Positions 7,529 to 44,485 of a stretch of 64,000 bases of DNA are shown piece by piece. Within the stretch, counting starts at the first letter, position 1; each line of letters opens with the position of its first letter. The notes beneath the pieces were generated by a model that was given only the letters and a program-made list of their open reading frames with translations, was not told the origin of the DNA and made no database searches. Location: the NCBI RefSeq assembly GCF_030697375.1, contig NZ_JAUYQD010000018.1, positions 124,001 through 188,000 of the forward strand. Reading direction: 5' to 3'. Source of the stretch: Rhodoferax sp. (GTDB taxonomy: Bacteria; Pseudomonadota; Gammaproteobacteria; Burkholderiales; Burkholderiaceae_C). Made by a program: the position numbers and the translations under genes.

Positions 7529-7953
7529 CACAACCCCAGCTGCGCTTTTTCTGCCCGCCCCCAGGCCCGGCAGTCTTCTGCGTAGGCGTTGTAGGCATCC
7601 ATTTCCAGGCTGGGCGCGGTGCGCATCAGCTTGAGCTCGTCGCTAATGCTGTAGCGCTGGGCAATGGCGTCGGTCACGCGGGCATTGATCAGTCGCACAT
7701 GCGGGCTAGCCTGTTTGATGGCATCACGCAAGTCAGCGGGCAGCGGCTGGGGCAGCACTTCGATGCTGGCGGCAATGGCTGCGGGTTGATTGGCGGGGAG
7801 CTCAAAACCATCGAGCAGCGCCACGACCGTGCGGCCGTCCACCAGGGTGGCAATTTCTTGCCCGGCCTGGGTGCCTTGGGGCGCATCAGGCAGGCGCAGC
7901 GTGTGGGTGGTAACGGAGTCGATAACTTTGCGGTAAGCGATTAAAGAGGTCAT
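7528..7953 (-). CDS. Phage protein of unknown function, downstream of DGR1 reverse transcriptase
   Basis: A 141-residue soluble protein. The start overlaps the 3' end of the reverse transcriptase gene by 68 bases in another frame. The first half (TLVDGRTVVALLDGFELPA) looks beta-rich and the C-terminal part (DAYNAYAEDCRAWGRAEKA) helical. Small proteins of this sort follow tail-tip or fibre genes in many siphophages and are sometimes fibre-assembly factors, but no family assignment can be made here. Confidence 0.6.
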   Translation of the reverse strand: MTSLIAYRKVIDSVTTHTLRLPDAPQGTQAGQEIATLVDGRTVVALLDGFELPANQPAAIAASIEVLPQPLPADLRDAIKQASPHVRLINARVTDAIAQRYSISDELKLMRTAPSLEMDAYNAYAEDCRAWGRAEKAQLGL

Positions 7954-8905
7954 AGTGCCGGTCTTTCAGGTGGGTTAAGAGTGGTTTGAGTGAACAGGTG
8001 CGCCGGGCATGGCCCAGCCGGGAAATGATGGATTCAAGGTTGCCTTTGCGGGCGTCGTGGCGCAAGGCGCTCACGATGCGCGGGCGCACAAAGCGCCCGG
8101 TAGCCCAGGTGCGAAAGCCCACAAAATTGGCGCCGCGCTTGATGGGGTGCAGGCTGTAGTGGCTGATCTCCAGGCCCAGCAGCGCCAGGTGCTGGCGAAT
8201 GCTGGCCAGCCACTGCAGGCCGGTGGCGCGGTCGGGCGCGAGCATGATGCTGTCATCCATGTAGCGGCCGTAGTCCTTGATCTTGAGACTGCGCTTGCAA
8301 AACTGGTCCAGGCTGTTGAGGTACACATTGGCAAAGGTCTGGCTCATCAGATTGCCAATGGGTACACCCGTCAGGTCCGGCCGGTGGGCAAACAAGGCCA
8401 TGGTGCGCAGCGTGGGCGCGCACTTGATCGTGCGGGCCAATAGCGCCGCCAAAACATCACGGTCAATGCTGTAAAAAAACTTGCGCACATCCACATGCAG
8501 CAGCCAATCAGTGCGCGGGGCGCGGCGCATGGCGGATTGAAGCCAGTCGGCGGCCATGTGTGTGCCCTTGCCGATGCGGCAGGCAAAGTTGGTGCCGATG
8601 TAGTGCGCCTCAAACACGAGCGAGGTCACCGCATATACGGCATGCTGCACCACCAGATCGCGAAAGGCAGGGGCTTCAATCAGGCGCGGCTTGCGCCCGT
8701 CGTGGACCATGAAGCGACTGCAGGGCCGAGGTCGATAGGTTTCGGTTTCCAGTTCGTGCTGCAGTGTTGCCAGATTGGACCCGAGGTTGCGGGCAAATTC
8801 AAAGCAGGCGCGGTGGCTGCGCTTGTGGCGGCTGGCCGCCTGGTAAGCCGCCATGAGCGTCTCCATGGTGCAGATGCGTGGGTAAAGGCTGCCTGCGCGC
8901 TTCAT
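7886..8905 (-). CDS. DGR1 reverse transcriptase
   Basis: Error-prone reverse transcriptase of the first diversity-generating retroelement. It copies the template repeat RNA while misincorporating opposite adenines, and the cDNA replaces the variable repeat in the tail-protein gene. In 339 residues: the catalytic Asp motif LHVDVRKFFYSID, the DGR-type motif 4 GVPIGNLMSQTFANVYLN (GNxxSQ rather than the retroviral form), the YMDD box in YGRYMDDSIMLAP, and the later IKRGANFVGFRTW. No maturase, endonuclease or integrase domain is attached. Order with its partners is target, Avd, TR, RT, all leftward. The start ATG overlaps by four bases the stop of an open frame that contains TR1. Confidence 0.95.
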   Translation of the reverse strand: MKRAGSLYPRICTMETLMAAYQAASRHKRSHRACFEFARNLGSNLATLQHELETETYRPRPCSRFMVHDGRKPRLIEAPAFRDLVVQHAVYAVTSLVFEAHYIGTNFACRIGKGTHMAADWLQSAMRRAPRTDWLLHVDVRKFFYSIDRDVLAALLARTIKCAPTLRTMALFAHRPDLTGVPIGNLMSQTFANVYLNSLDQFCKRSLKIKDYGRYMDDSIMLAPDRATGLQWLASIRQHLALLGLEISHYSLHPIKRGANFVGFRTWATGRFVRPRIVSALRHDARKGNLESIISRLGHARRTCSLKPLLTHLKDRHYDLFNRLPQSYRLRYHPHAAPA

Positions 8906-9189
8906 GCAGGCACCTTGATGGTTTGGGCTGCAACGCCAATTTTCACAAACGAGCCAACATGGGCCCGGGTTGTTACCAAAGGGCGTTGCCGCAAAACATT
9001 TCGCCGCAAGGCGCGACGGAGGCTCCCTCTTTGCCAGTCAGCACACGCTGCATCAGGCGTATTTGGCACAGAGTCGGAGCGAAAGCCCACGTTGTTGTTC
9101 GAGTTGCCCCGGACGTTGTTCAGATTCAGCGCCCAGACCCCGGCGTTCCCGCCGTTGTTCCAGTTGCCGCCAGAAATCACACACAGCAT
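8902..9189 (-). other. Open reading frame spanning TR1, coupled to Avd and RT genes
   Basis: A 95-codon open frame starts with ATG one base after the Avd stop and ends by a four-base ATGA overlap with the RT start. Its first 38 codons are the template repeat read in the same frame as the target gene's variable repeat (GGNWNNGGNAGVWALN); the rest is arginine-rich spacer. It may be a relic of the duplication that created TR, or a genuinely translated spacer. Translation is unproven. Confidence 0.4.
9075..9187 (-). repeat. DGR1 template repeat (TR1)
   Basis: This 113-bp segment aligns without gaps to 9667-9779 in the target gene. On the minus (sense) strand it holds 23 adenines, many in AAC codons. 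The two copies differ at 10 positions, each an adenine in TR1: nine A-to-G and one A-to-T in the variable copy. No other base differs. This adenine-only asymmetry is the diagnostic mark of DGR mutagenic retrohoming and fixes which copy is the template. Confidence 0.97.
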
Positions 9190-9190
9190 G

Positions 9191-9616
9191 TCAAGCCTCC
9201 ACCGCATTCGCGGGCTCGCGCCCGTGAATTTCTGCATTGACCCAGCCGCCAATCATGCGGCCCAGTTCATCCACCATGCGCAGGATCACCAGGTAGCGGC
9301 GCTCACCCGGGGCCTGCGCATCCTTGGTGCCGGCACTGTAGTTAAACAGGCCGAGTTCATGGGCCAGATGAATCATCATGCGCAGCTGCTCATGGCGCAC
9401 ATCGAGCTGGGTCAGGGTTGTTTTCTTGTGGTAGCGTTTTTGGCACTCAGTCACCAAGTTGTACACATCCAGGTAAGCCTGCCGAATGCCTTGCGTCAGG
9501 GTGTATTTGTGGCAATTGGGAAAGTGCGCCAAATAGCCCTCCAACTGCACAGCAAACAGCACCAGTTTGCGGTGCAAACCGGCTTCGGCATGGATGGATT
9601 GTGTTTTTTGTGACAT
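9191..9616 (-). CDS. DGR1 accessory variability determinant (Avd-like)
   Basis: A 141-residue, mainly helical, basic protein located between the target gene and TR1, the classical avd position. Avd proteins form four- or five-helix barrels that bind the reverse transcriptase and the TR RNA. Helical stretches are around LHRKLVLFAVQLEGYLAHFP, IRQAYLDVYNLVTECQKRYH, LDVRHEQLRMMIHLAHELG and YLVILRMVDELGRMIGGW. The call rests on fold impression, size and position. It is not obviously similar in sequence to the Avd of DGR2. Confidence 0.85.
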   Translation of the reverse strand: MSQKTQSIHAEAGLHRKLVLFAVQLEGYLAHFPNCHKYTLTQGIRQAYLDVYNLVTECQKRYHKKTTLTQLDVRHEQLRMMIHLAHELGLFNYSAGTKDAQAPGERRYLVILRMVDELGRMIGGWVNAEIHGREPANAVEA

Positions 9617-9652
9617 GGTGAATGCAGCCCTAATCGCTACCGCTCAGGGCCA

Positions 9653-10990
9653 TCAAAGATACGAGGCGGAGCGAAAGCCCACGCTGCTGCTCGAGTTGCC
9701 CCGGACGCTGCTCAGATCCAGCGCCCAGACCCCGGCGTCCCCGCCGCTGTACCAGCTGCCGCCAGAAATCACACACAGCTCATTCGGGCGGTAGTCCCAC
9801 AGACCATCCTGGCCAAACTGGTTAGAACCGCCGACACCAGTCAGCAGGGGGATGCCTGCGCTGGCCGCCTCCCAAGCGGTTCCGCTGGTGGCCTCACTCA
9901 GCACCTGGCCGGCGGAGCCAAATGTTTTCTGTGTGCTGCTGGCGGTAATGGACTGATAGGTGGCGCCGATGTTGTTGTACAACGCGGCCAGGCCGGTCGC
10001 GCCCCAAGCGTCGGTGGCCAGGGTGTTGCCGCTGGTGATGGCGGCGACATCGGCGCTGGTCTTGAGAAGGTAGTAATTGGTGGAGTCACTGGTCAGACCC
10101 AGATTGATCTCCCACATCGTGCCGTTGAGATCGGCCACACCGCAGTTTTGCCCGTTGTGGGTGGTTTTGGCGAAAAAGTTGGCGCTACCGGTTTTGGCCG
10201 AGTTATTGGCGGCGTAGCCGTCCCACACAAAGGCCAGGGTGGCGTCATTGGCATCGCCCAGGGCGTTGTTATTGCAGCCCTTGGGGTAGTTGGTGGAGCC
10301 CGCGCTGTACCAAGCGCAATAGGCTGCACTGGTGGCGGCACTGGCGTGCGCTACTGATAGCAGGGCCAGGGCAGCATGGATGAAGCGGGAATTGCAAAAA
10401 AAGATGCTGCCACGCGTCTTGGCGGCGGCAATGGCGCCATAGTAGGCGTCGGCTGGCGCGCCGCTCAGGCCGCTGAATGGGTTGTGCGCTGCGGCGCTGG
10501 ACAGTGGGTTGCCGTTTTTGATGGAGCTGGCGACGCCGCTGCCATTGTTGCTGGCGAGGTACTTGTCCACAAACACGCCGGGGCGGATGGTGCCGCCGTT
10601 GTAAAACGCGCGGTGCAGCGCATAGCCTGCGGCGTTGGCGGTGGCCACGTCGGCAAAATAGCCAAAGGCTTTGATGTCAACCACGTTGAGCGCAAAGCCG
10701 TTGGCGCCGGTGCCGTATTTGTAGAAAAAAGCGGGTAGATAGCACATGACCGAGCCGTCGCTGTACTGGTAATTGCCGTAGTTGTCACTGGCCGGATCTT
10801 CGGTGCCGTAGAGCTTGGCAAAGCCGGTGGGCAGGCTGGGCGCAATGCCAACGCCGAAGCCCTGCTGGCCCGGTGTGCCGATGTTGTTGACCAGGCCCGC
10901 GCCGGTGGCGGTGCCGATGCGGATGCCGTTGGGGAAGCTGACGGGCGAGCCGTCAGGGGTCTGGATGGTGCGGGTAACTAGGGTGCTCAT
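9653..10990 (-). CDS. DGR1 target: tail-tip protein with C-type-lectin-like variable domain
   Basis: A 445-residue probable receptor-binding protein at the end of the tail module. The N-terminal third begins MSTLVTRTIQTPDG, a fibre-like opening that contains the phrase FPNGIRIGTATG. The C-terminal part resembles the formylglycine-enzyme/C-lectin fold used by DGR targets, with DLNGTMWEINLGL, LCVISGGSWYSGG, AGVWALDL and GFRSASYL. The last 38 codons are the variable repeat. Residues written by mutated AAC codons include Y and S in SWYSGG, D in GGDAG and the serines of RGNSSSSVGF. Host-receptor switching is the usual role (established for Bordetella phage BPP-1; inferred here). Confidence 0.93.
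   Translation of the reverse strand: MSTLVTRTIQTPDGSPVSFPNGIRIGTATGAGLVNNIGTPGQQGFGVGIAPSLPTGFAKLYGTEDPASDNYGNYQYSDGSVMCYLPAFFYKYGTGANGFALNVVDIKAFGYFADVATANAAGYALHRAFYNGGTIRPGVFVDKYLASNNGSGVASSIKNGNPLSSAAAHNPFSGLSGAPADAYYGAIAAAKTRGSIFFCNSRFIHAALALLSVAHASAATSAAYCAWYSAGSTNYPKGCNNNALGDANDATLAFVWDGYAANNSAKTGSANFFAKTTHNGQNCGVADLNGTMWEINLGLTSDSTNYYLLKTSADVAAITSGNTLATDAWGATGLAALYNNIGATYQSITASSTQKTFGSAGQVLSEATSGTAWEAASAGIPLLTGVGGSNQFGQDGLWDYRPNELCVISGGSWYSGGDAGVWALDLSSVRGNSSSSVGFRSASYL
9667..9779 (-). repeat. DGR1 variable repeat (VR1)
   Basis: This is the 3' end of the target gene, matching TR1 except at ten TR adenines. At the 3' side identity stops 14 bases before the target stop codon; at the 5' side it stops within the codons for NELC. 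The last 23 and first 16 bases are invariant, which would supply the cDNA priming and strand-transfer homology. No strong hairpin like those of DGR2 is evident just downstream. Confidence 0.96.
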
Positions 10991-11012
10991 GGTGCTTTGC
11001 TCTCAAGTGGGT

Positions 11013-11492: not shown

Positions 11493-12377
11493 TTATCGGT
11501 AACCTGCAATTTCAAGGGCCAGGGTGATGCTGTTGTGGGAGTCGATCACTGGCACGGCGCTTACGTAGCGGCCAAACGCGTTGGCGGAGACAAAATCGTT
11601 TTGGCCGGGGGCGGCCACCCACAGCATGGGCACGCCGATATTGGCCGCGAGAAACCCCATCAAGCGGTTGTACGCGGCGCGCTCGGTCACGATGACGCCG
11701 CTGACGCCCTTGCTGTAACCGCGCTCCACGTTGACCGGATTTTTCAGGCTATCGAGGTAGTGGCGGCCCCGGTCTTCGATGGGGTTGGCAAAGCCGTACA
11801 GCGCGTCGCCCAAAAAAAACTGTTTACCTATCACGCACAGACCGCAGGCGGCGGTGGCCGCTGGGCTGGTGGCAATGCTAATCGTCACGGTGCAAGTGGG
11901 GCTACTGAGCAGGCCACTGAAAACGGCGGCATCCGTCTGGTATGGCGCCTCAAAGCAAAACCCGTAGTAGGTGCCGTCGCTGCTGGCCAGGGTGCGGGTC
12001 TCGGTGTAAATGAGCGTGGCGCCGTCCTCAATATCAAGCGTCACGCTTTGGCCCACCAGGCCCATCAAGCCAATGCAGGTAAAGCGGCCCACCGAAAGCG
12101 TCCAACTCAGACCGCCGGTATTGCTGGTCGCGGTTTGCACTGACGTATCGAACATGGCCAGGCTGTTGATGACGCCACCCTTCGTCCACCACAGCGGCTC
12201 GGTGGCGGGGGTGTGGCCGGTGTTGGGCCCCTCAAGAGACGTCCAGTTGTACCCGCCTGCGCTCACCACGTCGTTCAGCGCGTAGGCGACGCCCACGTCC
12301 CAGGCATCGGCGTCCACCGCCGTGGTGGACGTCAGTACGCCAGGGGCCGTGCAATCAATGGGCGGTACGGCGATCAT
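11493..12377 (-). CDS. Distal tail protein with chitin-binding-like module
   Basis: A 294-residue phage protein whose start overlaps the tape-measure stop by four bases (ATGA), the usual place of the distal tail protein. Residues 25-65 (AWDVGVAYALNDVVSAGGYN, then W-rich ATEPLWWTKGG) resemble the carbohydrate-binding module 5/12 fold often found on tail proteins. The C-terminal third (KGVSGVIVTERAAYNRLMG) is typical of tail-tip proteins that bind the tube. A carbohydrate-binding role is inferred from the aromatic pattern only. Confidence 0.65.
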   Translation of the reverse strand: MIAVPPIDCTAPGVLTSTTAVDADAWDVGVAYALNDVVSAGGYNWTSLEGPNTGHTPATEPLWWTKGGVINSLAMFDTSVQTATSNTGGLSWTLSVGRFTCIGLMGLVGQSVTLDIEDGATLIYTETRTLASSDGTYYGFCFEAPYQTDAAVFSGLLSSPTCTVTISIATSPAATAACGLCVIGKQFFLGDALYGFANPIEDRGRHYLDSLKNPVNVERGYSKGVSGVIVTERAAYNRLMGFLAANIGVPMLWVAAPGQNDFVSANAFGRYVSAVPVIDSHNSITLALEIAGYR

Positions 12378-15300
12378 GCGGCCACCGTTGTTTGAAGTGG
12401 CTCTGCGGGGTCGTTGTAGACCATTACGCCATTGCGGTCCATGCTCTTGACGGCATCGGAAGTCGTGGCCGCATGACTGGCGATGGCGATGTTTTCCAGG
12501 CTGTTGGCCTTTTTCAGTTCGGCCACCTCCTTGATCAACGTCTCCAGCAGCGCCTCCATGCGCGCGGTGTTGCCGCCCTGCCCGCCTCCGCCGATGCGGG
12601 CGTGCACGCCCAGACGGCCGCCAACATTAGCCAGCGGCAAAATACCTTCGCTGGTGTCCTCGCCCATCAAGCCAATATCAAACATCGTCGGGCGCGATAC
12701 GACGCCATTGGTAAAGGCGCCGCCAGTGGCAAAGGCTGCACCACCCCATGCGGAGGTGGATGGTGGAGTGGTTTTTGTGATGGCCCCCACCACGGCGGCC
12801 AAACCGTTCAGGGTGGCATCACCACCGGCCTTGATGGCGCGGGCAATGGTTTGCGTACCGTCATCAAGCAATGCAAGCTGCTTGTCGATGCTGCCCAGCA
12901 TGCTCAAGCTGTCGGCCTGGTAGTCGCCCAAGCCCTTGACTCCAGCATCCACAAGCTTGGCAACGCCTTCGGCTTGCGTCAGGTAGTCGGATATTTTGCT
13001 GTCGCGCCCCGTGGCTTTCATGATCTCGATCAGCGGGTTGATCAGCGCGTTGATCTTGTCGCCCTGCGCTGCCAGCGCTTCGCCAGTGGTGCTTTTGGCC
13101 AGCAGGGAGGCGGCGCTGAACTGCGCAGCCAGGTCCTGAAACTTTTGCTCGTCGGTTTTTTGGCTGTAGCTGTAGGCCGTGATGGTGTCGCGGATGCCGC
13201 TGGCGCTTTTGGTCATCAACTCGGCCAGCGCCTTTTGGCTCTCGTAATACTTGACCGTCTCTTCGCGCAACTTGGTCAGCCTGGGCACTGCCTTGCTGGC
13301 TTGCACAATGTAGGCGTCGGTCGCTGCGGTGTAGGCCAGCAGGGCGCTTTTGGCGGCGGTTTGTGCGGCGGCTTGCGCGACGGTCACGGGCCCGATGGCG
13401 GCCTGGGCTGCGACTGACACCGCTTGCGCCTTGGCAATGTTGGCCGCTGCAGTGGCAAGGGCCGCACTTCCGCCCGTCAAAATGGCATTCAACTGCGCAT
13501 AGCGGGGGTCTTTTTTCATACCCGCAACATCGGGGTTGTAGGCCGTGGACACGCTGCCAAAAATTCCATTGCTCAGCGTGTTGGTGTAGTTGCTGTACCC
13601 GATGGAGTTAAAGCCATTGAGCTGATTGGTGGCTGCGTTGTAGTTGTACGCGTCGTTGTTTTCTCCGGTTGCATTGAAGCGAATGGAGGTACCTGCCGGG
13701 CTGTAAGCCGCCCCCAACGCCCGCAGTTGTGCGTTTTGCGCGGCGTAGTAGTTCACCGTGTCCGTTTTGGCGGTCTGCGCCACGCTCAACGCAGCGGATG
13801 CGTTGAGTGCACTTGCATTGACTGCGGCCTGATTTTTGCTGGCCATGGCCAGCGCAGCGTCCGCCGAATCCAGCGCACCCTGGGCTGCGATCATCTGCGC
13901 GCTGCCAGAGCCCCCAATGGTCGCATCGATGTCGCCCCGGATTTGCGCCCCACTGCGCTGCGCCGGGTTGATGATCTGCAATGCCGCTTCGGCCACGGCA
14001 ACGCGCTCGGTGTTGATGTCGCCGATCACGCCCTGGATGCGGCTGGCCAAATTCTCAAACACCGCGGCAATGGTTGCAACAAAAGTCTCGGTATTGACGT
14101 CGGACAGCGCCGTTGTCAGCCCCGCGAAGTTGATGCGGGTCTTGTCAGCCTGATCCTTAAGATCGGCAAGCTGGGCATGGAGCATGCTGGCCGCGATTTG
14201 TGCGCCGACCAATGGTTGCCCCAGTGCAGCCGCCTTGCTGATAGTGGTGATCACGCCGGAGGTCGGGTCGCCCATGATCTTGTTGATCTGGCTGATGCCG
14301 CCCGCAAAGTCCGTGGTTTTGCCTGCTGCATCGGTCAGGTGGTAGATGAGCTGGCCGCTGCCGCTGATGGATGTCGTCAGGGTGGACACCTTGCCGCCGG
14401 CATCCACAATGGCAGTTGACAATCCGCTGGGCGTATTACCAAGGGCCGCATTGATGTTGCCCACCACCAGCGCCAGCGGACGCCCATCAACGTCCTTGAG
14501 CATGGAGTTGATCCCTGTGATTGACGCATCGACAGGCTTGCCGTCCAGTCCGCGCAAATAGGTGTTGGCCAGCTCCATCGACGCGCCGACCGGGGCGGCA
14601 TCGACCAGCGTCAGGTAGCCGCTCAGGCTATTGGCGGCGGTTGCTGCGGCGTCCGTCTTGAGGCTGACGGCATCCAGCGCAGGCACCAGTTGACCGTTGC
14701 CGGTGAACGTGCTCATGAGCTTGATGGCGGTTTCGCTGGAGAACTTTGCAATGGCGTCTGCGGTGGTGGCGAATTCCGGTGCAATGGCCAGCAAGGTGGC
14801 GTAGGCGGCCCGGCCATATTCCGTGTTTAGGTCCAGCGTTCCCGCTAGCGCCTTGAGCGCGTCTTTGCTTGTGGGCAACGCCAAATTGACTGCCGCCAAT
14901 GCATCGGTCATCAGGCGTTGGCTGTTGGCCACTTTTTCGCCTTCGGTGTAATACGTGTCGTAAAACGCCTTGCTGTTGGCGCTGAGTTGGTCCAGCCCGC
15001 CGAAGGCGTCCGCCAGCTTGCTTGCGGCGTCACCACCGGCCAGCGAGACCTGAAACAGGCGCTGGCGCAGCATGGACAGCCAGCCGTTGGCCGTGGTGAT
15101 GCTGGTGGACAGCCGGGCCAGGGTCGCGCTGGCGGTCTCGCCGTCCTTTGCCATCGTGGCAATACTCGGGGCGACCTTGGCGGCCATGCCGTCGGCGATG
15201 GTTTTAAACAGCGCCTCAATTGCCTTTTTGTTGGCCTCGGCATCGCTGCCAAGCGCCACGCTGATGTCTTGGCTGTACTGCGTGATTTTTTGCGCATCCA

Positions 15301-18007: not shown

Positions 18008-18018
18008 GGCTTTACCTG

Positions 18019-18719
18019 TTATGTTTTTTGTTTTGCCCACTCCTCCAGTGCGGCAATCTCCATCGCTTGAATGCACCCAAACAGCGCAATTCGCTCCTTT
18101 GGCTTAATGCCAAGCACATCGCGCAGGTACCCGGTGACACTGGCGTAATCCAGCCCTGTGCGCCCGCCCATTGCGCTTTCGCGCCATTGGGTCTGCAGTC
18201 GTTGCCACACATTGAATGCGGCCACATTGCAGGGCCACAGGTGACATTTGTCAGGCGGTGGTGCATCGGGATCTTCTTCGGCCTGCTGAAAGCCAAAGGC
18301 CGCAAGTGCTTCGTCAAACTCGGCGTCAGGCTCATCTCGTGCCCCGGGTATGTAAAGTTGGCCGCGCGCCTGGATGCGCGCGACCTGCGCTAGTTTTTTT
18401 CCTTGGCGCCACATTCCCGCAGGTAGGCCGCCCAGCACAAGGCAAGTACGTTACCAACGCGGAACATGGCCTGCAGCGCTTCGCGGCTGAATTCGGCGGG
18501 CTTGCCGTCCTCCCCCAGCACCAGGGTTTGCCCATGCCAGCCGGTCACGTTGTCCAGCATGAATTCCGAGATGGTGAGGCCGGAAGCCTCGGCCTCCGAC
18601 TCTTCGGCGGTTTTGCGATTGGCCAGCAGGGTGACAGCAAAAGGCTTGTTGACCTTGCCCGCCTTGAGTGTGAATTTGACGGGGACTTCTACAACATTGT
18701 CGATTGCCAGGGTGAACAT
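18019..18719 (-). CDS. Tail assembly chaperone GT fusion (made by -1 frameshift)
   Basis: Predicted 233-residue frameshift product. Ribosomes read gene G from 18719, slip back one base at AAAAAAC (18399-18393) and continue as KKLAQVARIQARG to the stop at 18019. In lambda and most siphophages the G and GT proteins wrap the tape measure and recruit tail tube subunits. The T part (PDKCHLWPCNVAAFNVWQRL) has no separate start codon with good support. The fusion ends 12 bases before the tape measure start, exactly where such pairs occur. Confidence 0.88.
18390..18719 (-). CDS. Tail assembly chaperone G
   Basis: The unshifted product, 109 residues (MFTLAIDNVVEVPVKFTLKA and on to ECGAKEKN), ending at TAG directly after the slippery heptamer. 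It is an acidic helical chaperone used in excess over the GT fusion during tail assembly. A mid-region Glu-rich stretch (TAEESEAEASGLTISEF) is present. It lies between tail tube and tape measure genes, the universal siphophage order. Confidence 0.85.
   Translation of the reverse strand: MFTLAIDNVVEVPVKFTLKAGKVNKPFAVTLLANRKTAEESEAEASGLTISEFMLDNVTGWHGQTLVLGEDGKPAEFSREALQAMFRVGNVLALCWAAYLRECGAKEKN
18393..18399 (-). promoter_or_regulatory. Programmed -1 frameshift slippery heptamer
   Basis: A-AAA-AAC in canonical X-XXY-YYZ phase with the zero frame (GAA AAA AAC TAG). The zero-frame stop follows at once and the -1 frame is open for 125 further codons. The same position and phase are found in many siphophage G/T pairs. 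Confidence 0.9.
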
Positions 18720-33367: not shown

Positions 33368-34078
33368 ATGGAAATGAGTGATGACGCCCTTATTCGACTT
33401 GCAAATCTGAAATCCCTGGGGTGGGGCCCGACAGACCTCGCCAATAAAGTCGGCAATAGCTATCAGTACTGGCGAGATCTGCTGGCAGGAAATAAATCGT
33501 TTGGAGAAAAGGCTGCACGAAACATAGAGGAGAAACTTAGCTTGCCTCGTGGATGCCTAGACTTGGCGCACGGATGCGGTGTTCAGAATGTTGATTCTGA
33601 AGCTCGAAAATCAATCAAAATAGTCAGCATCAGGAATAAGCAAAACAAGCCGGACGAGCTTGTCATTCCTCAATTCGACACGGGGGGAGCAATGGGGAGC
33701 GGTTTGTTACTAAGGGATCAGCCTGGAGTCATCCAGAGTTGGGTTGTCAATGCCGAGTGGGTTCAGAAGAACATCAAAAGCCACACCGGGGCCGCAAACC
33801 TGTGCATCGTTACCGGCTTTGGTGATTCGATGAAAGGCATGTTCAATTCTGGCGACCCCCTGGTCCTCGACAAAGGGGTTACATCCGTTGAATTCGATGC
33901 GGTCTACTTCTTTCGGGTTGAAAATGAAGGCTTCATTAAACGCCTGCAGCGCATCCCCGGCGAGGGCTTGCGCGTGCTGTCAGAAAACAAAAAATATGAC
34001 TCTTGGACCGTTAAGCCCGGAATGGACTTTGAGGTCTTTGGCCGGGTTGTCAAGGCCTGGCAAGGCGAAGATTTTTAA
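33368..34078 (+). CDS. CI-like repressor with S24 (LexA/UmuD) peptidase domain
   Basis: A 236-residue prophage repressor. The N-terminal domain (DDALIRLANLKSLGWGPTDL, then ANKVGNSYQYWRDLLAG) is helix-turn-helix. Residues about 95-230 are a LexA-like S24 domain with the serine in TGFGDSMKGMFNSGD and the lysine in GFIKRLQRIPG. RecA-stimulated self-cleavage would couple induction to DNA damage (family knowledge). It is divergent from the Cro-like gene across a 66-base operator region. Codon use is more AT-rich than neighbouring genes, common for repressors. Confidence 0.92.
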   Translation: MEMSDDALIRLANLKSLGWGPTDLANKVGNSYQYWRDLLAGNKSFGEKAARNIEEKLSLPRGCLDLAHGCGVQNVDSEARKSIKIVSIRNKQNKPDELVIPQFDTGGAMGSGLLLRDQPGVIQSWVVNAEWVQKNIKSHTGAANLCIVTGFGDSMKGMFNSGDPLVLDKGVTSVEFDAVYFFRVENEGFIKRLQRIPGEGLRVLSENKKYDSWTVKPGMDFEVFGRVVKAWQGEDF

Positions 34079-38977: not shown

Positions 38978-41023
38978 ATGAAGCGCGACACCTTCACCCT
39001 GCCACTGGCATTCCCCGGTGAACTGATCATCGACAACTTCGCAGGCGGGGGCGGTACCTCCACCGGACTAGAGGCTGCGTTCGGGCGGCCGGTGGACATT
39101 GCGATCAACCACAACGCCGAGGCGCTGGCGATGCACGCTGCCAACCACCCGCATACACGCCACCTGTGCGAAAGCGTGTGGGATGTCGATCCCATCGCGG
39201 TGACGCAAAACCAGCCCGTCGGCCTGGTGTGGCTGTCACCCGACTGCAAGCATTTCAGCAAGGCCAAGGGTGGCAAGCCGGTAGAGAAAGACATTCGCGG
39301 CCTCGCCTGGATCGGCGTGCGCTGGATCGTGCGCACCAAGCCGCGCGGCTTCATGCTGGAGAACGTAGAAGAGTTCCAGACCTGGGGGCCACTGATGACC
39401 GACCAAGACGGCAACACCCGCCCGGACCCAGCGAAGAAGGGGCAGACCTTCCGCGTGTTCAAGCAGATGCTGACCACCGGCGTGCCGATGGCCGAGCGCG
39501 AAGGCAACGAATCGATTGAGGACGCTCGCGTGGCGCTCTGCACCGGGCCACTGGCATTCACCGAAGCCGAGTTCGCCCTGGCGCTCAACGGCCTGCGATA
39601 CACCGTGGAGTGCGCCGAACTGAAGGCCTGCGACTACGGCACACCCACCATCCGCAAGCGCTTCTTCATGGTCGGCCGCCGCGATGGCCTGCCCACCGTT
39701 GCCCGCCCGCCAGTCTCGCACGCCGCGCCAACCAGCAAGGAGGCAAAGTCAGGCAAGCTGCAGCCCTGGCTCACGGCCGCCGAGTGCATTGACTGGTCGA
39801 TCCCCTGCCCCTCGATTTTTGATCGCAAGAAACCGCTGGCTGACGCCACGCTACGCCGCATCGCCAAGGGCATCATGCGCTACGTGGTCAATTCGGCCTC
39901 CCCGTTCATTGTCAATTTGACCCATCAAGGCGGCGACCGTCTTGAATCACTGGGCGAACCGCTGAGAACTATCACAGGCGCACATCGGGGCGAGAAAGCA
40001 CTGATTGATGTGCAAGTGGCGTCGTTTGTGGCAAACACGGCCAACAGCAAAACCACCGGGAGGGCCCCAAACCACTGGACTGCCGAAGAGCCATTGCGCA
40101 CCATCACATCAGCGCCCGGCTTTGCCGCCGTCGCCGCAACGCTGGTGCAAACTGGCTACGGCGAGCGCGTCGGCCAGGCACCGCGGGCACTGGACATCGG
40201 CAAGCCGCTGGGCACCGTGGTGGGTGGCGCGGCCAAGCATGCGCTGGTATCGGCTTTTTTGGCGAAGCACTACACCGGAGTGGTTGGCAGCGACATGGTG
40301 GACCCGGTGGGCACAGTCACCGGCGTGGACCACCACAGTCTAGTGACGGCTACGATGGTGACGATTGACAACCAGTCGAGCACCAGCGGCCAAAGCGCCA
40401 TTACCGAGCCACTGAAAACAACCGTCACAGAAAACCGCCATGCGCTTGTCGCCGCCCACCTGGTGCACATGGGCCACGGCGAGCAGGCCAACGGAAAAGC
40501 ACGCTGGAGCCATGGCGTGCGCGCCGTGGAGGTGCCGCTGAACACCGTGGCCGCATCTGGCATGCCGGCTGCAATTGTCACGAGCAATCTGGTGAAGCTG
40601 CGCGGCACCAACGTGGGCAGCGCTACCGACGAGCCACTGCACACGGTCAGTGCCGGAGGCCAGCACCACGCCGAGGTGCGCGCCTTCTTGCTGAGCTACT
40701 ACGGCACCGACCAGAACCCGGACATTGCCGGGCCGCTGGCAACGGTGACAAGCCGCGACCGCTTCGGCCTGGTGACCATTCACGGCCAGGACTACCAGAT
40801 CGTTGACATCGGGTTGCGCATGCTATCGCCGCGCGAACTGTTCAGGGCCCAAGGCTTCCCGGCGAGCTACATCATCGGCGACGACGAGCGTCAGGGCCTC
40901 AAGCTCACCAAGAGTGCCCAGGTGCGAATGTGTGGCAACAGCGTTCCCCCACCGCTGGCCGAGGCTCTGGCCCGGGCTAACTTTGCGCATGAAGCGCTTA
41001 TTTATGGGAGACAAGCAGCATGA
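38978..41023 (+). CDS. C5-cytosine DNA methyltransferase with internal PLxT repeat array
   Basis: A 681-residue DNA methylase likely protecting phage DNA from host restriction. Motif I: DNFAGGGGTSTGLEAAFG; motif IV with catalytic Cys: LSPDCKHFSKAKGG; motif VI: MLENVEEFQTW; motif VIII: DYGTPTIRKRFFMVGRR; motif IX: LSPRELFRAQGFPASYI; motif X: RMCGNSVPPPLAEAL. Between VIII and IX, where the target-recognition domain normally sits, are eight units of about 33-44 residues with the core PL-x-T-V/I (EPLRTITGAH, GKPLGTVVGG, TEPLKTTVTE, DEPLHTVSAG and others; 39955-40780). The length exceeds the usual 330-450. Confidence 0.93.
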   Translation: MKRDTFTLPLAFPGELIIDNFAGGGGTSTGLEAAFGRPVDIAINHNAEALAMHAANHPHTRHLCESVWDVDPIAVTQNQPVGLVWLSPDCKHFSKAKGGKPVEKDIRGLAWIGVRWIVRTKPRGFMLENVEEFQTWGPLMTDQDGNTRPDPAKKGQTFRVFKQMLTTGVPMAEREGNESIEDARVALCTGPLAFTEAEFALALNGLRYTVECAELKACDYGTPTIRKRFFMVGRRDGLPTVARPPVSHAAPTSKEAKSGKLQPWLTAAECIDWSIPCPSIFDRKKPLADATLRRIAKGIMRYVVNSASPFIVNLTHQGGDRLESLGEPLRTITGAHRGEKALIDVQVASFVANTANSKTTGRAPNHWTAEEPLRTITSAPGFAAVAATLVQTGYGERVGQAPRALDIGKPLGTVVGGAAKHALVSAFLAKHYTGVVGSDMVDPVGTVTGVDHHSLVTATMVTIDNQSSTSGQSAITEPLKTTVTENRHALVAAHLVHMGHGEQANGKARWSHGVRAVEVPLNTVAASGMPAAIVTSNLVKLRGTNVGSATDEPLHTVSAGGQHHAEVRAFLLSYYGTDQNPDIAGPLATVTSRDRFGLVTIHGQDYQIVDIGLRMLSPRELFRAQGFPASYIIGDDERQGLKLTKSAQVRMCGNSVPPPLAEALARANFAHEALIYGRQAA

Positions 41024-41451: not shown

Positions 41452-41496
41452 GCACCACCCGTTTTCCCACTGTCAACCCCACCACCGAGAGCCACC

Positions 41497-42087
41497 ATGC
41501 AACTCCATATCGCCCACGCCGTCATCCACCTCAACATGCCGCACCCCGGCAACGACGAGCAGTTTTCATTCATTCCCGGCGTGCTTGCAGAAAAAGAAAT
41601 GCAAGCACGCACCGATCTCACGCCACCCGCCATGGGTGAATACTGGCCCGGCCAGGGCGGGCGCTACATCTGCACCTTGCCCGCGTTATTGGACATGCCA
41701 GAGCGCCACCTGATCGCTGCAGAAGGTGAAACCGAAGACCTGACGTTTGGCCCTAGCGAAGACGTGCAAGGCGCTGCCAGCCAGATCGACGGCACAGCCA
41801 ATACCAAAGCACTGCTGGCCCACGGAAAACACCCAGCAGCACTGTGCGCCAGCGCGTACACAGCAGACGGCCACACAGACTTCTTCCTGCCCTCCAAGCT
41901 GGACATGGTGATGGCCCACATCTGCGCCCCACAGCTTTTCAAGAAAAGCGGCTGGTACTGGACCAGTACCCAGGGCTCCCGCAGCTTCGCCTTCGTCCAG
42001 GACTTTGAGAACGGCATTTCGGACTGGTACTACAAGGACTACGACCACAGGGTCAGGGCTTTCCGCGTGATTCCCTTGAACGCTTAA
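41497..42087 (+). CDS. DGR2 target A: DUF1566-type variable protein
   Basis: A 196-residue protein that is almost entirely one DUF1566 (C-type-lectin-like) domain: GHTDFFLPSKLDMVMAHIC, GWYWTSTQGSRSFAFVQDF and a terminal HRVRAFRVIPLNA. The last third is the variable repeat. There is no signal peptide, membrane helix or fibre-type N-terminus. Its paralogue follows at 42153, sharing the PGQGG, GH-D-FLPS and YWTSTQGSR pieces. As it is encoded in the early operon, not with the tail genes, its site of action is uncertain: an adhesin on the virion, or a variable protein used inside or on the lysogen. Confidence 0.92.
   Translation: MQLHIAHAVIHLNMPHPGNDEQFSFIPGVLAEKEMQARTDLTPPAMGEYWPGQGGRYICTLPALLDMPERHLIAAEGETEDLTFGPSEDVQGAASQIDGTANTKALLAHGKHPAALCASAYTADGHTDFFLPSKLDMVMAHICAPQLFKKSGWYWTSTQGSRSFAFVQDFENGISDWYYKDYDHRVRAFRVIPLNA
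41968..42066 (+). repeat. DGR2 variable repeat A (VR2A)
   Basis: This 99-bp segment is gap-free against TR2 (offset 1293). It differs at ten positions, all adenines in TR2: four A-to-G and six A-to-T. Altered codons give G, S, F, I, D and three Y where TR2 encodes N. No non-adenine change is present. Confidence 0.96.
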
Positions 42088-42102
42088 CCACTTAACCCCT
42101 TT

Positions 42103-42117
42103 ACCGGCGAAGCCGGT
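42103..42117 (+). repeat. Hairpin downstream of VR2A
   Basis: ACCGGC-GAA-GCCGGT, 36 bases after the VR. It contains GCGAAGC, known as an unusually stable DNA mini-hairpin. A near-copy follows VR2B at almost the same distance. Hairpins just after VR are required target features in the BPP-1 DGR. Confidence 0.75.
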
Positions 42118-42152
42118 TCGCGCAATTTTTTTCACCACCACAGGAGCTACCC

Positions 42153-42668
42153 ATGAAAGTACACCCCGTCACCCTGCCCGCCTTTGGCGCGGCCATCCCC
42201 GGCCAAGGCGGCATATTCGCCGCGATCTTGCGCGGCCCCACCGTGGACGGCATCGAGCAGCCACCCTTTGCGCTGCTGGTGTCGGACGCCTCCCAAGGCG
42301 AGTTTGAAGACATCACCTGGGGCGAATATGGCAAGGATGTGCCAGGCACCAGCAGCCGCACCGACAGCAAAGCCAACACCGACGCCATGGTGCTGGCCCA
42401 TTGCCCTGCCGCCCTCAAGGTGCGCGACTTGACCATTGACGGCCACAGCGACTGGTATCTGCCAAGCCTCGGTGAATTGAACTCGGCCGCCGCCAATGTG
42501 CCCGAGCTTTTCAGCACCGATGACTATTACTGGACCAGCACCCAGGGCTCCCGCCACGACGCCTTCGTCCAGGACTTTGAGGACGGCGGTTCGTACTGGG
42601 TCCTCAAGGTCTACGCCCACAGGGTCAGGGCTTTCCGCCGGATTTCACTTGAGCTCTTGAACACTTAA
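42153..42668 (+). CDS. DGR2 target B: DUF1566-type variable protein
   Basis: A 171-residue paralogue of target A, starting MKVHPVTLPAFGAAIPGQGG. The DUF1566 body includes LTIDGHSDWYLPSLGELNSA and YYWTSTQGSRHDAFVQDF; the end is HRVRAFRRISLELLNT. Again no export or fibre motif is visible. CAGGAG precedes the ATG. The variable segment gives G, H, D, D, G, Y, V, L, V, Y and A at sites where TR2 encodes N or D. Tandem duplication of the target gene, followed by independent diversification from one template, is the simplest reading. Confidence 0.92.
   Translation: MKVHPVTLPAFGAAIPGQGGIFAAILRGPTVDGIEQPPFALLVSDASQGEFEDITWGEYGKDVPGTSSRTDSKANTDAMVLAHCPAALKVRDLTIDGHSDWYLPSLGELNSAAANVPELFSTDDYYWTSTQGSRHDAFVQDFEDGGSYWVLKVYAHRVRAFRRISLELLNT
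42540..42638 (+). repeat. DGR2 variable repeat B (VR2B)
   Basis: This 99-bp segment is gap-free against TR2 (offset 721). It differs at fifteen positions, all TR2 adenines: seven A-to-G, five A-to-T, three A-to-C. Two of these (positions facing 43267 and 43268) are shared with VR2A. Confidence 0.96.
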
Positions 42669-42675
42669 ACCCTTT

Positions 42676-42690
42676 ACCGGCGCAGCCGGT
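42676..42690 (+). repeat. Hairpin downstream of VR2B
   Basis: ACCGGC-GCA-GCCGGT, 37 bases after VR2B. It has the same stem as the hairpin after VR2A but a GCA loop. No counterpart follows TR2, consistent with a mark that tells target from template. Confidence 0.75.
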
Positions 42691-42707
42691 CCGCGAGATT
42701 TTTTGCT

Positions 42708-43082
42708 ATGGCCCTTTACTCTGACCTCCCAATTTACAAACACGGCTGCGACCTGCTTTCACTGGCGCTGGACGTGCAAACCCAGTTGCCGCGCATGTAC
42801 AAGCGCAGCCTGGGCGAAAAAATCCACGGCAAGTGCGTGGACATGCTGGAAGCCATGGCCATGGCAAACGCCTCGCGGGACATTGCCCGCGTTGAGCAGA
42901 TTGACACCCTGCTACAGCGCCTGCGCGCCACCACCGCCATGCTACGGGTCAGCCATGACAAACGACTGATTTCGCACGAACTGTGGGCCCAGTCTGTTGA
43001 AGTGCTGGACGCCGTGGGCTCCCAGGCGGGCGGCTGGCGCAAGCAGACCCTTAAAAACCTTTCCGCAGCGCCTGCTGTATGA
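42708..43082 (+). CDS. DGR2 accessory variability determinant (Avd, four-helix bundle)
   Basis: A 124-residue protein matching the common Avd/four-helix-bundle pattern: LPIYKHGCDLLSLALDVQTQ, LPRMYKRSLGEKIHGKCVDM, LEAMAMANASRDIARVEQID, TLLQRLRATTAMLRVSHDKR, LISHELWAQSVEVLDAVG and a basic tail. It would bind reverse transcriptase and TR RNA. It lies between the targets and TR2, the same order as in DGR1. The stop overlaps by four bases the frame that runs through TR2 into the reverse transcriptase. Confidence 0.92.
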   Translation: MALYSDLPIYKHGCDLLSLALDVQTQLPRMYKRSLGEKIHGKCVDMLEAMAMANASRDIARVEQIDTLLQRLRATTAMLRVSHDKRLISHELWAQSVEVLDAVGSQAGGWRKQTLKNLSAAPAV

Positions 43083-43381
43083 CGGTCAAGGCCATCATGC
43101 CCGAGCGTTTTATGAATCCGGTCAAGCCGCTGGGGCACCACCCCACCGCCATGCGCACCACGGAGACCGGCGAGCCCCAACAGCTCGCGCTCTGGTCCGG
43201 CGCAGTTACCGACCTGATCGGCGCAAGCCTTCGGAGCGGCGACGTAGATAGCTTGAATAAACCCAGAACTCCCGCAACAACGCCTTCGTCCAGGACTTTG
43301 AGAACGGCAATTCGAACTGGAACAACAAGGACAACGACCACAGGGTCAGGGCTTTCCGCGGATTCATCGCCCCACACCGGC
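43079..43381 (+). other. Open frame through TR2, continuous with the DGR2 reverse transcriptase
   Basis: From an ATG overlapping the Avd stop (ATGA), a frame stays open for 101 codons, through TR2 in a frame different from the VR frame, and continues into the reverse transcriptase without a stop. Its first 60 codons (MTVKAIMPERFMNPVKPLGH and so on) look like plausible protein; the TR2 part reads as Thr/Arg-rich. Either the RT has an N-terminal extension encoded by TR2, or the open frame is incidental. Confidence 0.4.
43261..43359 (+). repeat. DGR2 template repeat (TR2)
   Basis: This 99-bp template has 30 adenines, mostly in AAC/AAT codons when read in the VR frame (RNNAFVQDF, NGNSNWNNKDND). 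It matches two VRs, and every difference in either lies at a TR2 adenine. It sits between the Avd gene and the RT catalytic region. Confidence 0.97.
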
Positions 43382-44485
43382 ATGGGTGGGGCACCCTTTT
43401 CTTTTGCCAGCCTGGTGCAGGCCTGGCTGGACTGCCGGCGCAACAAGCGCCAAAGCGCTACCGCACAGGCCTTTGAGGCCAATGCCGAGCAAAACCTGTG
43501 TGCGCTGCGCGACGAGCTGCTGGCGGGCGCCTATCTCCCCGGGAGCTCCACCTGCTTTGTCATCACCCGGCCCAAGCCGCGTGAAGTGTGGGCAGCAGAT
43601 TTTCGGGACCGCATCGTCCACCACCTGTTGTACAACCACATTGCGCCGCGCTTTATCGCCAGCTTTGTGGCCAACAGTTGCGCCTGCATCCCTGGGCGCG
43701 GCACCCTGTACGCTGCCCGGAGGCTGGAGCACTCGGTGCGATCCATCACGCAGAACTGGAGCCGCCCAGCGCATTACCTGAAGCTGGATTTGTCCAATTT
43801 CTTTGTGGCCATCGACAAGCAGGTGCTGTTCAAGCAACTGGCCGCCAAGGTGCACGAGCCGTTTTGGCTGGAGCTGACAAAGACGGTGCTGTTTCACGAT
43901 CCGCGCCTATCGTTTCAATTTCGGGGCGATTTGTCACTGATTGAGCGGGTTCCGTTACACAAAAGGCTACTTTTGTCCCAGCCAGACACCGGCTTGCCCA
44001 TTGGCAACCTGAGCAGTCAGTTTTTCGCCAACGTCCACTTGGACGCACTTGACCAGTTTTGCAAGCACCAGATCAAGGCCCGCCACTACGTGCGCTATGT
44101 CGATGACTTTGTGCTGCTGCACGAGTCACCCCAGTGGCTGCACCAGGCGCTGCAGCGCATTGACGCCTGGTTGCCAGAGCGCCTGGGCGCGCACCTGAAC
44201 CCCACCAAGACCATCCTGCAGCCAATTGAGCGCGGCATTGATTTTGTGGGCCACGTCATCAAGCCATGGCGCCGGACCACACGCCCCCGCGCCGTGGCCA
44301 CCGCCGTGCGCAGGTTGCGGGATATGCCTGCCGAGGACGTGTTTACCGCTGGAAACAGCTATCTGGGCCTGCTGGGCCAGGCCACACACAGCCACAAAGA
44401 CCGAGCCACTGTGGCCAACGTGCTGCGCAAGCGCGGGCATGCGGTCAATGGCGCGATCACCAAGATTTACAGGAAGAAACCATGA
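43382..44485 (+). CDS. DGR2 reverse transcriptase
   Basis: Second DGR-type reverse transcriptase, 367 residues from the ATG at 43382. Motifs: palm Asp YLKLDLSNFFVAIDKQVL, DGR-type motif 4 GLPIGNLSSQFFANVHLD, YVDD in YVRYVDDFVLLHE, and the later IERGIDFVGHVIKPW. The N-terminal FASLVQAWLDCRRNKRQS fits the usual RT start, so translation probably begins near 43382, although the frame is open from 43079. Sequence clearly differs from the DGR1 enzyme outside the motifs, so this is not a recent internal duplication. It overlaps the next gene by four bases. Confidence 0.95.
   Translation: MGGAPFSFASLVQAWLDCRRNKRQSATAQAFEANAEQNLCALRDELLAGAYLPGSSTCFVITRPKPREVWAADFRDRIVHHLLYNHIAPRFIASFVANSCACIPGRGTLYAARRLEHSVRSITQNWSRPAHYLKLDLSNFFVAIDKQVLFKQLAAKVHEPFWLELTKTVLFHDPRLSFQFRGDLSLIERVPLHKRLLLSQPDTGLPIGNLSSQFFANVHLDALDQFCKHQIKARHYVRYVDDFVLLHESPQWLHQALQRIDAWLPERLGAHLNPTKTILQPIERGIDFVGHVIKPWRRTTRPRAVATAVRRLRDMPAEDVFTAGNSYLGLLGQATHSHKDRATVANVLRKRGHAVNGAITKIYRKKP

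What the first reader, a model, noticed from the sequence alone, without database searches (positions are those of the whole stretch)
7886..44485. Two complete, apparently independent diversity-generating retroelements in one prophage
Both ends of the prophage carry a full DGR in the same internal order (target, Avd, TR, RT): one leftward at 10990-7886 and one rightward at 41497-44485. Each has an intact DGR-type RT (GNLMSQ with YMDD; GNLSSQ with YVDD) and its own Avd-like gene, and the TR/VR differences are adenine-only in both. The two TRs, Avds and target domains share no evident similarity, so this is not an internal duplication. One DGR per phage is the usual situation; two with different target folds would give the phage two separate hypervariable systems.
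Basis: partly seen in the sequence, partly recalled or inferred. Interest (0 to 1): 0.96.

Follow-up and report, generated by a model that had tools for sequence, protein, structure and literature searches.

The report
Phage carrying two protein-hypermutation systems
One dormant bacterial virus carries two separate retroelements of the kind that hypermutates genes: one likely varies a tail protein that would grip host cells, and the other likely varies two small lectin-shaped proteins that are predicted to be made from its early genes and not to be part of the virus particle.

Summary
Confirmed. One 41-kb prophage (att repeats at 4683 and 45638) holds two complete DGRs of different lineages. 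DGR1 (10990-7886, minus) lies between tail and lysis genes. DGR2 (41497-44485, plus) lies among rightward genes behind the repressor and has two small Lcl_C-like targets. All TR/VR mismatches are at TR adenines (11/11, 10/10, 15/15). The RTs are 32% identical and fall in separate clades, so this is not a recent duplication. 'Different target folds' should read 'probably different C-type-lectin subtypes'. DGR2 belongs to a broad phage lineage: 78 of 80 and 76 of 77 fetched relatives have A-specific TR/VR pairs, mostly two small targets, and the integrase, where found, is nearly always downstream. Near-identical phages of both lineages differ at VR adenine sites, so both lineages mutate in nature; the window's copies were not tested. 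A second RT is rare: 0/50, 1/50 and 1/37 relative records. Both other dual phages pair a tail-type with a DGR2-type DGR, convergent across an integrase; one tail-type target has an Mtd domain. DGR2's biological role is inferred.

The parts
4683..4700 (.). attL core, 18-bp direct repeat
   Evidence: exact repeat at 45638-45655; close match between BrkB and DUF2069 in 9 of 11 congener loci
4759..5754 (+). integrase-like ORF (331 aa), weak matches only
   Evidence: Int_N E 5.5e-4 and Phage_integrase E 0.0012, both below cut-off; lies next to attL
5755..6213 (-). endolysin
   Evidence: phrog_7 E 3.6e-42
7886..8905 (-). RT1, DGR reverse transcriptase (339 aa; IGNLMSQ, YMDD)
   Evidence: RVT_1; 40% to BPP-1 Brt over 81%; tree
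9071..9187 (-). TR1
   Evidence: 11 of 11 mismatches at A
9191..9616 (-). Avd1
   Evidence: bAvd PF22296 E 6.3e-13
9653..10990 (-). T1, target of DGR1, tail-region protein (445 aa)
   Evidence: phrog_5302 tail protein E 2e-5; stronger hits are to families of unknown function; family profile matches TaqVP 5vf4 E 4e-4
9663..9779 (-). VR1
12374..18076 (-). tail tape measure protein (context of DGR1)
   Evidence: phrog_25966 E 5.5e-110
33368..34078 (+). CI-like repressor, first recognised regulator of the rightward genes
   Evidence: phrog_4 E 3e-28
38978..41023 (+). DNA methyltransferase
   Evidence: phrog_116 E 5.2e-94
41497..42087 (+). T2a, first target of DGR2 (196 aa, Lcl_C-like)
   Evidence: phrog_4245 E 2.2e-24; Lcl_C E 0.0039, below cut-off; 48% to T2b over 163 aa
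41968..42067 (+). VR2a
   Evidence: 10 of 10 mismatches at TR A
42103..42117 (+). hairpin 36 nt 3' of VR2a (6-bp stem, 3-nt loop), followed by a T run
   Evidence: sequence
42153..42668 (+). T2b, second target of DGR2 (171 aa, Lcl_C-like)
   Evidence: Lcl_C E 6e-7, below cut-off; model mean pLDDT 95.7
42540..42638 (+). VR2b
   Evidence: 15 of 15 mismatches at TR A
42676..42690 (+). hairpin 38 nt 3' of VR2b (same stem)
42708..43082 (+). Avd2
   Evidence: bAvd PF22296 E 3.9e-11; homologue in 155 of 157 RT2-type loci
43261..43360 (+). TR2
43382..44485 (+). RT2, DGR reverse transcriptase (367 aa from the likely start; IGNLSSQ, YVDD)
   Evidence: RVT_1; relatives align from here; tree
44482..45447 (+). 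DUF5131 (phage Gp37/Gp68-like; that name is recalled), overlaps the RT2 stop
   Evidence: PF07505 E 3.3e-88; PADLOC candidate models PDC-M41B and PDC-M30B
45447..45635 (+). excisionase-like small protein (weak)
   Evidence: TIGR01764 E 0.0092, below cut-off; no Pfam match
45638..45655 (.). attR core

Best explanation
A single prophage carries two complete diversity-generating retroelements from two different lineages: DGR1 likely diversifies a tail receptor-binding protein and DGR2 likely diversifies two small lectin-fold proteins that are predicted not to be part of the virion. In each, the RT with its Avd is expected to copy its own TR RNA with errors opposite adenines, and the cDNA to replace the 3' part of its own target gene(s). 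Shown here: the parts, the adenine-only TR/VR differences, no match of either TR to the other system's VRs, the separate clades, and the att-bounded prophage. Also shown: VRs that differ mainly at TR-A positions between otherwise near-identical members of both lineages, and a tail-type plus DGR2-type pair in two other phages. Inferred: that the window's two copies are active now, that T1 contacts the host surface, and that T2a/T2b act inside the lysogen or infected cell. My choice for the last is recognition of variable host or rival-phage molecules, in superinfection control or counter-defence. The pair is best seen as two modules acquired separately, one at the end of the late genes and one near the end of the rightward genes, which would face each other across attP in the circular phage.
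For: Anatomy and families. Adenine-only differences, chance 2.9e-9, 1.7e-6, 6e-10. Each TR finds only its own VRs in the assembly. RT1 group of 22 rows and RT2 group of 32 rows each one side of a 100/100 branch. Prophage bounded by att, empty site in congeners. DGR2 lineage: A-biased TR/VR in 78 of 80 loci (1974 of 2001 mismatches at A) and 76 of 77 (1958 of 2022), pairs having been pre-selected for 75% or more at A; opposite-strand control 1 of 80. Targets: 145 called, median 200 aa; 12 of 147 (with the window's two) have a hydrophobic N-terminus, 15 of 147 a membrane-like stretch. Integrase downstream of the RT in 76 of 163 loci, upstream in 2. T2-like proteins lie shortly behind cI in PMG1 and PAN70, with no RT annotated in the stretches shown. 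Natural variation: RT2 type L255/L257, RT DNA and TR identical, 14 differences in one VR, 13 at TR A; RT1 type L166 and L168-L171, RT and TR identical, 12-15 differences all at A in 9 of 10 pairs. Dual phages: G479 (TR/VR 17/17; 10/10 twice) and G486 (12/12; 11/11 twice), convergent with an integrase between; the G486 tail-type target has the Mtd second domain, E 1.7e-18, and holds the VR at its C-terminal end.
Against: No population reads for this lysogen, so present activity of either copy is untested. T1 was placed by position and weak profile matches; its fold model failed (pLDDT 48.8). No virion proteome: T2a/T2b could be minor virion parts. No hairpin with a 6-bp stem and 3-6-nt loop lies within 80 nt 3' of VR1. 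The hairpins behind the DGR2 VRs (6-bp stem, 3-nt loop, 36-38 nt away) depart from the published phage pattern (7-10 bp, 4-nt loop, 4-34 bp away) and look like terminators. In the lineage a hairpin was found behind 94 of 259 VRs (4.2% in base-shuffled copies) but also behind 28 of 239 TRs. Of 25 RT2-type pairs with identical RT DNA from different contigs, 17 show no VR difference. The window's own integrase frame has only sub-threshold Pfam matches. Dual DGRs occur at about the rate expected from chance pairing, so nothing shows functional coupling.
Confidence: 0.8

Rival explanations
1. Both DGRs serve host attachment: T2a/T2b would be small virion proteins (decoration or tail accessory) encoded away from the late genes, so that the phage has two tropism systems.
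For: DUF1566 DGR targets of Bacteroides phages were proposed to set host range (PMC8143477, passages). The T2b model resembles adhesin-type domains.
Against: T2a/T2b lie among the rightward genes behind the repressor, with the RT upstream of an integrase in the annotated relatives and in 76 of 163 loci. They are small and single-domain. T2-like genes lie shortly behind cI in PMG1 and PAN70.
Confidence: 0.2
2. Only one of the two DGRs is functional and the other is a relic in decay.
For: A relative (G453/L247; RT1 79%, T1 77% identical) keeps a T2-like end and Avd2, but of RT2 only the C-terminal 41 residues were found. VR1 has no clear hairpin behind it.
Against: Both RT frames are open with IGNxxSQ and YxDD motifs (motifs as recalled); both TR/VR sets differ only at A; both lineages show recent variation elsewhere.
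Confidence: 0.15
3. The pair is an assembly chimera of two phages.
For: The genome is a 115-contig assembly; no read data could be checked.
Against: One att-bounded prophage within a 298-kb contig with host genes on both sides and an empty site in congeners. The same convergent two-DGR layout stands on two other single contigs.
Confidence: 0.03

Closest known systems
Bordetella phage BPP-1 DGR (Mtd/Brt)
   Same: DGR1 has the same parts, with the target in the tail region; RT1 is 40% identical to Brt. The dual phage G486 has a target with the Mtd second domain.
   Different: BPP-1 gives a single RT place. The T1 family profile matches TaqVP, with no Mtd chain listed up to E 5.
Thermus aquaticus prophage DGR variable protein TaqVP (5VF4)
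   Same: T1 family profile matches it at E 4e-4 for the whole sequence, with a second, weaker stretch over the variable end.
   Different: Neither stretch is significant alone, most of T1 is unaligned, and T1's own model is poor.
DGRs of Burkholderia phage Magia and Pseudomonas phages Haboob, LPPA56, Cruim01
   Same: RT2-type RT at 59-65% identity and an integrase downstream on the same strand. Magia's record already marks two small lectin-fold proteins as possible DGR targets, and an Avd-like gene.
   Different: One RT place per record; no tail DGR beside it was found.
Bacteroides uniformis phages F1/F2/F4
   Same: DUF1566-type targets, two targets for one RT (PMC8143477, passages).
   Different: One RT place in the records listed; the authors place the targets in host adhesion; the F2 RT joins the RT2 group only as a very long sister branch.
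Cells with two DGRs (Bacteroides sp. 1_1_14; Trichodesmium erythraeum)
   Same: Two DGR RTs in one genome (PMC3521204, passage; PMC8867640, passages).
   Different: Two in a cell's genome, not shown within one phage.

Membership tests
Diversity-generating retroelement (both cassettes) | RT of the DGR clade | tested here: met
   RVT_1 hits; grouped with phage DGR RTs including BPP-1 Brt, apart from two other RTs of the same genome, one with a sub-threshold group II maturase match, the other unclassified
Diversity-generating retroelement (both cassettes) | TR/VR pair with mismatches at TR adenines | tested here: met
   11/11, 10/10, 15/15
Diversity-generating retroelement (both cassettes) | accessory Avd gene | tested here: met
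   bAvd PF22296, both above cut-off
Diversity-generating retroelement (both cassettes) | VR at the C-terminal end of the target gene | tested here: met
Diversity-generating retroelement (DGR1) | hairpin 3' of VR, as in BPP-1 | tested here: not met
   none with stem of 6 or more and loop 3-6 within 80 nt of VR1; 12 of 45 VRs of the RT1 family have one. Reported for many, not all, DGRs, so I do not let it bar membership
Diversity-generating retroelement (DGR2) | hairpin 3' of VR, as in BPP-1 | tested here: inconclusive
   6-bp stem, 3-nt loop behind both VRs, 36-38 nt away, terminator-like
Diversity-generating retroelement (both cassettes) | mutagenic retrohoming in this lysogen | not testable with these tools
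   no reads; variation seen only in relatives
Lcl_C / DUF1566 domain (T2a, T2b) | Pfam PF07603 match | tested here: inconclusive
   T2b E 6e-7 and T2a E 0.0039, both below the curated cut-off; 42 of 50 aligned members match at E 1e-3; T2b's own database record carries PF07603
Lcl_C / DUF1566 domain (T2a, T2b) | fold of the Lcl C-terminal domain (C-type-lectin type) | tested here: met
FGE-type C-type-lectin variable protein (T1) | sequence match to TaqVP | tested here: met
   profile E 4e-4 for the whole sequence, no single stretch significant alone
FGE-type C-type-lectin variable protein (T1) | fold | tested here: inconclusive
   model pLDDT 48.8
Roux et al. DGR clades 1-6 | placement on their RT tree | not tested
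   their reference sequences were not at hand

The most novel reading that the evidence does not exclude
Temperate phages carry a second kind of DGR that is not for tropism: a module of the lysogeny (repressor-to-integrase) region that keeps rewriting small intracellular lectin-fold proteins, in effect a prophage-borne adaptive recognition system acting against rival phages or host defences. Some phages, as here, run it beside a separate tail-diversifying DGR.
Probability: 0.27. Interest if true: 0.88.

Novelty: new variant of a known kind. Interest (0 to 1): 0.66.

Why it matters
DGRs in phages are mostly explained as tropism switches of tail proteins. Here one phage has a tail-placed DGR and, separately, a DGR whose targets sit among repressor-to-integrase genes. 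This gives a natural internal control: one phage, two RTs, two selective settings. It makes the open question of what phage DGR targets outside the tail are for directly testable, by comparing VR1 with VR2a/VR2b in lysogens and in virions. The DGR2 lineage is large (343 IMG/VR stretches encode a relative of RT2), so an answer would apply widely.

Tried and rejected
Rejected: an internal duplication (RTs 32% identical, separate clades), and further VRs or TRs elsewhere in the assembly (none at E 0.001). T1 fold search was not run because the model was too poor. PADLOC gave no match at E 0.001 for T2a, T2b or the neighbours at 41020, 37666, 36040 and 32447. A search of 399 same-family genomes (own included, a sample of a larger group) found RT1-like RTs in 5 and RT2-like RTs in 15, own included in both, at E 1e-22. 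G066 and G156 are in both lists through one and the same gene, so no second genome with both types appeared. That RT1 search did not return the window's own RT2, so it is blind to RT2-type RTs. Of six genome contigs with RT1 relatives, none gave an RT2-type partner on the same contig.

Enrichment of the pair was considered and not claimed. Whole-record searches for a second RT covered 50 of the 80 loci (0 with two), 50 of the 77 new loci (1, G486) and 37 of the 70 loci (1, G479); longer contigs were preferred and many are fragments. The loci themselves (up to 10 kb each side) were all scanned, which gave the same two phages. About 0.2-1% of phages carry a DGR (PMC7981956, passages).

Weak points of my own work: the TR/VR finder keeps only pairs with at least 75% of mismatches at A, so the A percentages of the families are conditioned on that. 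The integrase model was built from five sequences, only two of which match each other by BLAST at E 1e-3; four of the 56 same-strand hits are its own sources. The shuffles keep base composition only. The DUF5131 query was out of frame; its counts there are void and were redone (10 of 157 loci). Some loci are one contig fetched twice; 138 of 157 RT2-type RT sequences are distinct.

No paper reporting two DGRs in one phage was seen in PubMed Central open-access text in the listings (capped lists). Subscription papers and supplements were not searched.
Full report
OBSERVATION. Two complete DGR cassettes lie in one prophage, in the order target, Avd, TR, RT. DGR1 runs leftward: T1 10990-9653, VR1 9779-9663, Avd1 9616-9191, TR1 9187-9071, RT1 8905-7886. 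DGR2 runs rightward: T2a 41497-42087, T2b 42153-42668, Avd2 42708-43082, TR2 43261-43360, RT2 to 44485. Pfam gives RVT_1 for both RTs and bAvd for both Avds, above the cut-offs. All TR/VR mismatches fall on TR adenines: 11/11, 10/10 and 15/15, with hypergeometric chance 2.9e-9, 1.7e-6 and 6e-10. Of these, 10 of 11, 10 of 10 and 13 of 15 lie in AAC/AAT codons of the TR. In the 5.8-Mb assembly TR1 finds only itself and VR1, and TR2 only itself and its two VRs. The longest RT2 frame starts at 43079 and is open through TR2; relatives, searched with the part from 43382, align from its first residues, so I take RT2 as about 367 aa.

ONE PROPHAGE. An 18-bp direct repeat lies at 4683-4700 and 45638-45655. 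A 331-aa frame at 4759-5754, just inside the left copy, has sub-threshold integrase matches (Int_N E 5.5e-4, Phage_integrase E 0.0012); I take it as the integrase. In 9 of 11 congener loci the two flanking host genes (BrkB and DUF2069) are adjacent, with a close match to the core between them; in the other two they are about 1 kb apart. The name DUF2069 is recalled and comes from no call. The prophage is therefore about 41 kb, inside a 298-kb contig. Leftward genes include primase, terminase, portal, head, tape measure, T1 and endolysin. Rightward genes include a CI-like repressor, RusA, a DNA methyltransferase, DGR2, DUF5131 and a weak excisionase match. In the circular phage the two DGRs would face each other across attP.

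TWO LINEAGES. RT1 and RT2 are 32% identical. In a tree of 68 RTs, the 22 RT1-type rows and the 32 RT2-type rows are each one side of a branch with 100/100 support, each against the rows of the other group. One ungrouped reference, phage Bise, falls inside the RT1 branch, and the placements of long-branch reference phages are unsure. T1 shows no significant BLAST similarity to T2a/T2b, nor Avd1 to Avd2.

THE DGR2 LINEAGE. RT2 relatives are encoded by 343 stretches in IMG/VR, of which the best 80 were kept; a second query gave 80, 77 of them new. A-biased TR/VR pairs were found in 78 of 80 (1974 of 2001 mismatches at A) and in 76 of 77 (1958 of 2022). The finder keeps only pairs with 75% or more of mismatches at A, so the percentages are conditioned on that; the control is the opposite strand, 1 of 80 against 78 of 80 by one criterion. 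In the first set, 58 of the 78 loci have two VRs assigned to ORFs, 11 one, 7 three, 1 four and 1 none. The 145 called targets have median length 200 aa; a crude scan finds a hydrophobic N-terminus in 12 and a membrane-like stretch in 15 of 147 (with the window's two). An integrase, sought with a five-sequence HMM, lies downstream of the RT in 76 of 163 loci (56 same strand, of which 4 are the model's own sources; 20 opposite) and upstream in 2; the rest gave no hit, many being fragments. All five annotated phages examined have an integrase downstream on the same strand; a repressor is annotated upstream in two of them, Magia and Haboob. T2-like proteins lie shortly behind cI in PMG1 and PAN70, with one and four small genes between, and no RT annotated in the stretches shown. 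This is why I infer a non-virion, early or lysogenic role for T2a/T2b. It remains an inference.

NATURAL VARIATION IN RELATIVES. Of 44 RT2-type pairs with RT DNA at least 92% identical, 30 have identical RT DNA, and 5 of those are one contig fetched twice. Of the other 25, three show 7-14 differences in a VR with the TR identical (13 of 14 at TR A in L255/L257 and L256/L257; 5 of 7 in L277/L278), five show a single difference (at TR A in two) and 17 show none. Four less close pairs with identical TR (L265/L269, L318/L323, L318/L324, L323/L324) show 11-20 differences per compared VR, mostly at A; six pairs could not be compared for want of a shared flank. In the RT1 family 58 of 70 loci have an A-biased pair (815 of 852 mismatches at A, same pre-selection). 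Of 25 close pairs, 12 have 12-15 VR differences with the TR the same: all at A in the nine such pairs of L166 and L168-L171, and 13-14 of 14-15 at A in the three of L160/L161/L206. Ten pairs have none. L174/L175 (34 differences, 20 at A), L186/L194 (TR differs) and L154/L155 (one difference, not at A) do not fit cleanly.

HAIRPINS. Both DGR2 VRs are followed by a 6-bp-stem hairpin 36-38 nt away, unlike the published phage pattern (PMC3240598, passages) and terminator-like. In the lineage 94 of 259 VRs have such a hairpin within 80 nt, against 4.2% of base-shuffled copies and 28 of 239 TRs; in the RT1 family 12 of 45 VRs; VR1 of the window has none.

HOW RARE IS THE PAIR? A whole-record RVT_1 search found a second RT in 0 of 50 (of 80) and 1 of 50 (of 77 new) RT2-type records and 1 of 37 (of 70) RT1-type records. 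Among annotated phages 121 and 148 records matched RT2 and RT1, one place each. The two dual phages are G479 (IMGVR_UViG_3300010965_000229: RT1-type 51%, RT2-type 67%; A-only pairs 17/17, 10/10, 10/10) and G486 (IMGVR_UViG_3300050014_000489: RT2-type 64% with pairs 11/11 twice, plus an RT that groups with BPP-1 Brt on long branches, with a 12/12 pair whose target carries the Mtd second domain). In both, the DGRs are convergent with an integrase between them. A third, G453, has RT1 at 79% and only remains of DGR2: a T2-like end, Avd2 and the last 41 residues of RT2. With a background of about 0.2-1% DGR phages (PMC7981956, passages), the pairing is near what independent acquisition would give; I do not claim that the two systems are coupled.

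MECHANISM. Each RT and Avd pair most likely acts on its own TR, since each VR matches only its own TR. DGR1 most likely changes host attachment. DGR2 most likely changes what two small soluble lectin-fold proteins bind; my preferred role is recognition of rival-phage or host-defence molecules, on position alone. DUF5131, encoded directly behind RT2, matches PADLOC candidate-defence models, a weak hint only: a homologue was found in 10 of 157 relatives.

PRIOR WORK. DUF1566 targets and several VRs per DGR are known (PMC6642488, passages; PMC8143477, passages; PMC11792537, passages). Two DGRs in one cell are known. PMC8144416 (sections 8, 9, 10 and the first part of Results; one passage) classes phage targets as structural or unknown and speaks of non-structural targets. 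A DGR-based immunity idea for prokaryotes is in PMC10053308 (passages and part of the Results). My searches saw no report of two DGRs in one phage (calls listed under Tried and rejected); they cover open-access text only.

VERDICT. The new element is less the number two than the contrast: a tail-type DGR beside a member of a broad DGR lineage of the repressor-to-integrase region.

Noticed in passing
L016, L018, L019, L034, L043, L072, L073, L082, L083, L089; L092 4507-4887: Some DGR2-type phages have an extra VR-bearing gene 3-7 kb upstream of the cassette; Magia's record also marks a lectin-fold candidate target there, near its repressor.
   Followed up: partly
L028, L048, L049, L059, L061, L085, L087: Two VRs fall in one called ORF (270-422 aa), which may be fused double-lectin targets or a gene-calling effect.
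   Followed up: no
L013, L015, L035: The TR lies 0.3-1.2 kb from the RT instead of just before it.
   Followed up: no
L247 1-1047 (G453): Decayed DGR2 in a close relative: T2-like end and Avd2 kept, RT2 reduced to its C-terminal 41 residues as far as found.
   Followed up: yes
L003, L004 (own genome, contigs C81 and C15): Two further RTs in the same genome: L003 best matches PADLOC retron-type models, L004 the UG17 defence RT model.
   Followed up: partly
L351 5980-6468, L353 5872-6468, L352 3977-4468: T2-like small proteins in PMG1 and PAN70 behind cI and in a Pseudomonas jumbo phage, with no RT annotated in the stretches shown.
   Followed up: partly
window 48394-49713 and 54916-56139: Two HipA-type genes in the host flank right of the prophage.
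   Followed up: no
G579 (Ectothiorhodospira mobilis, locus L358), contigs C3 and C4: RT matches to RT2 on two different contigs of one genome, one of them the RT1-type locus itself.
   Followed up: no
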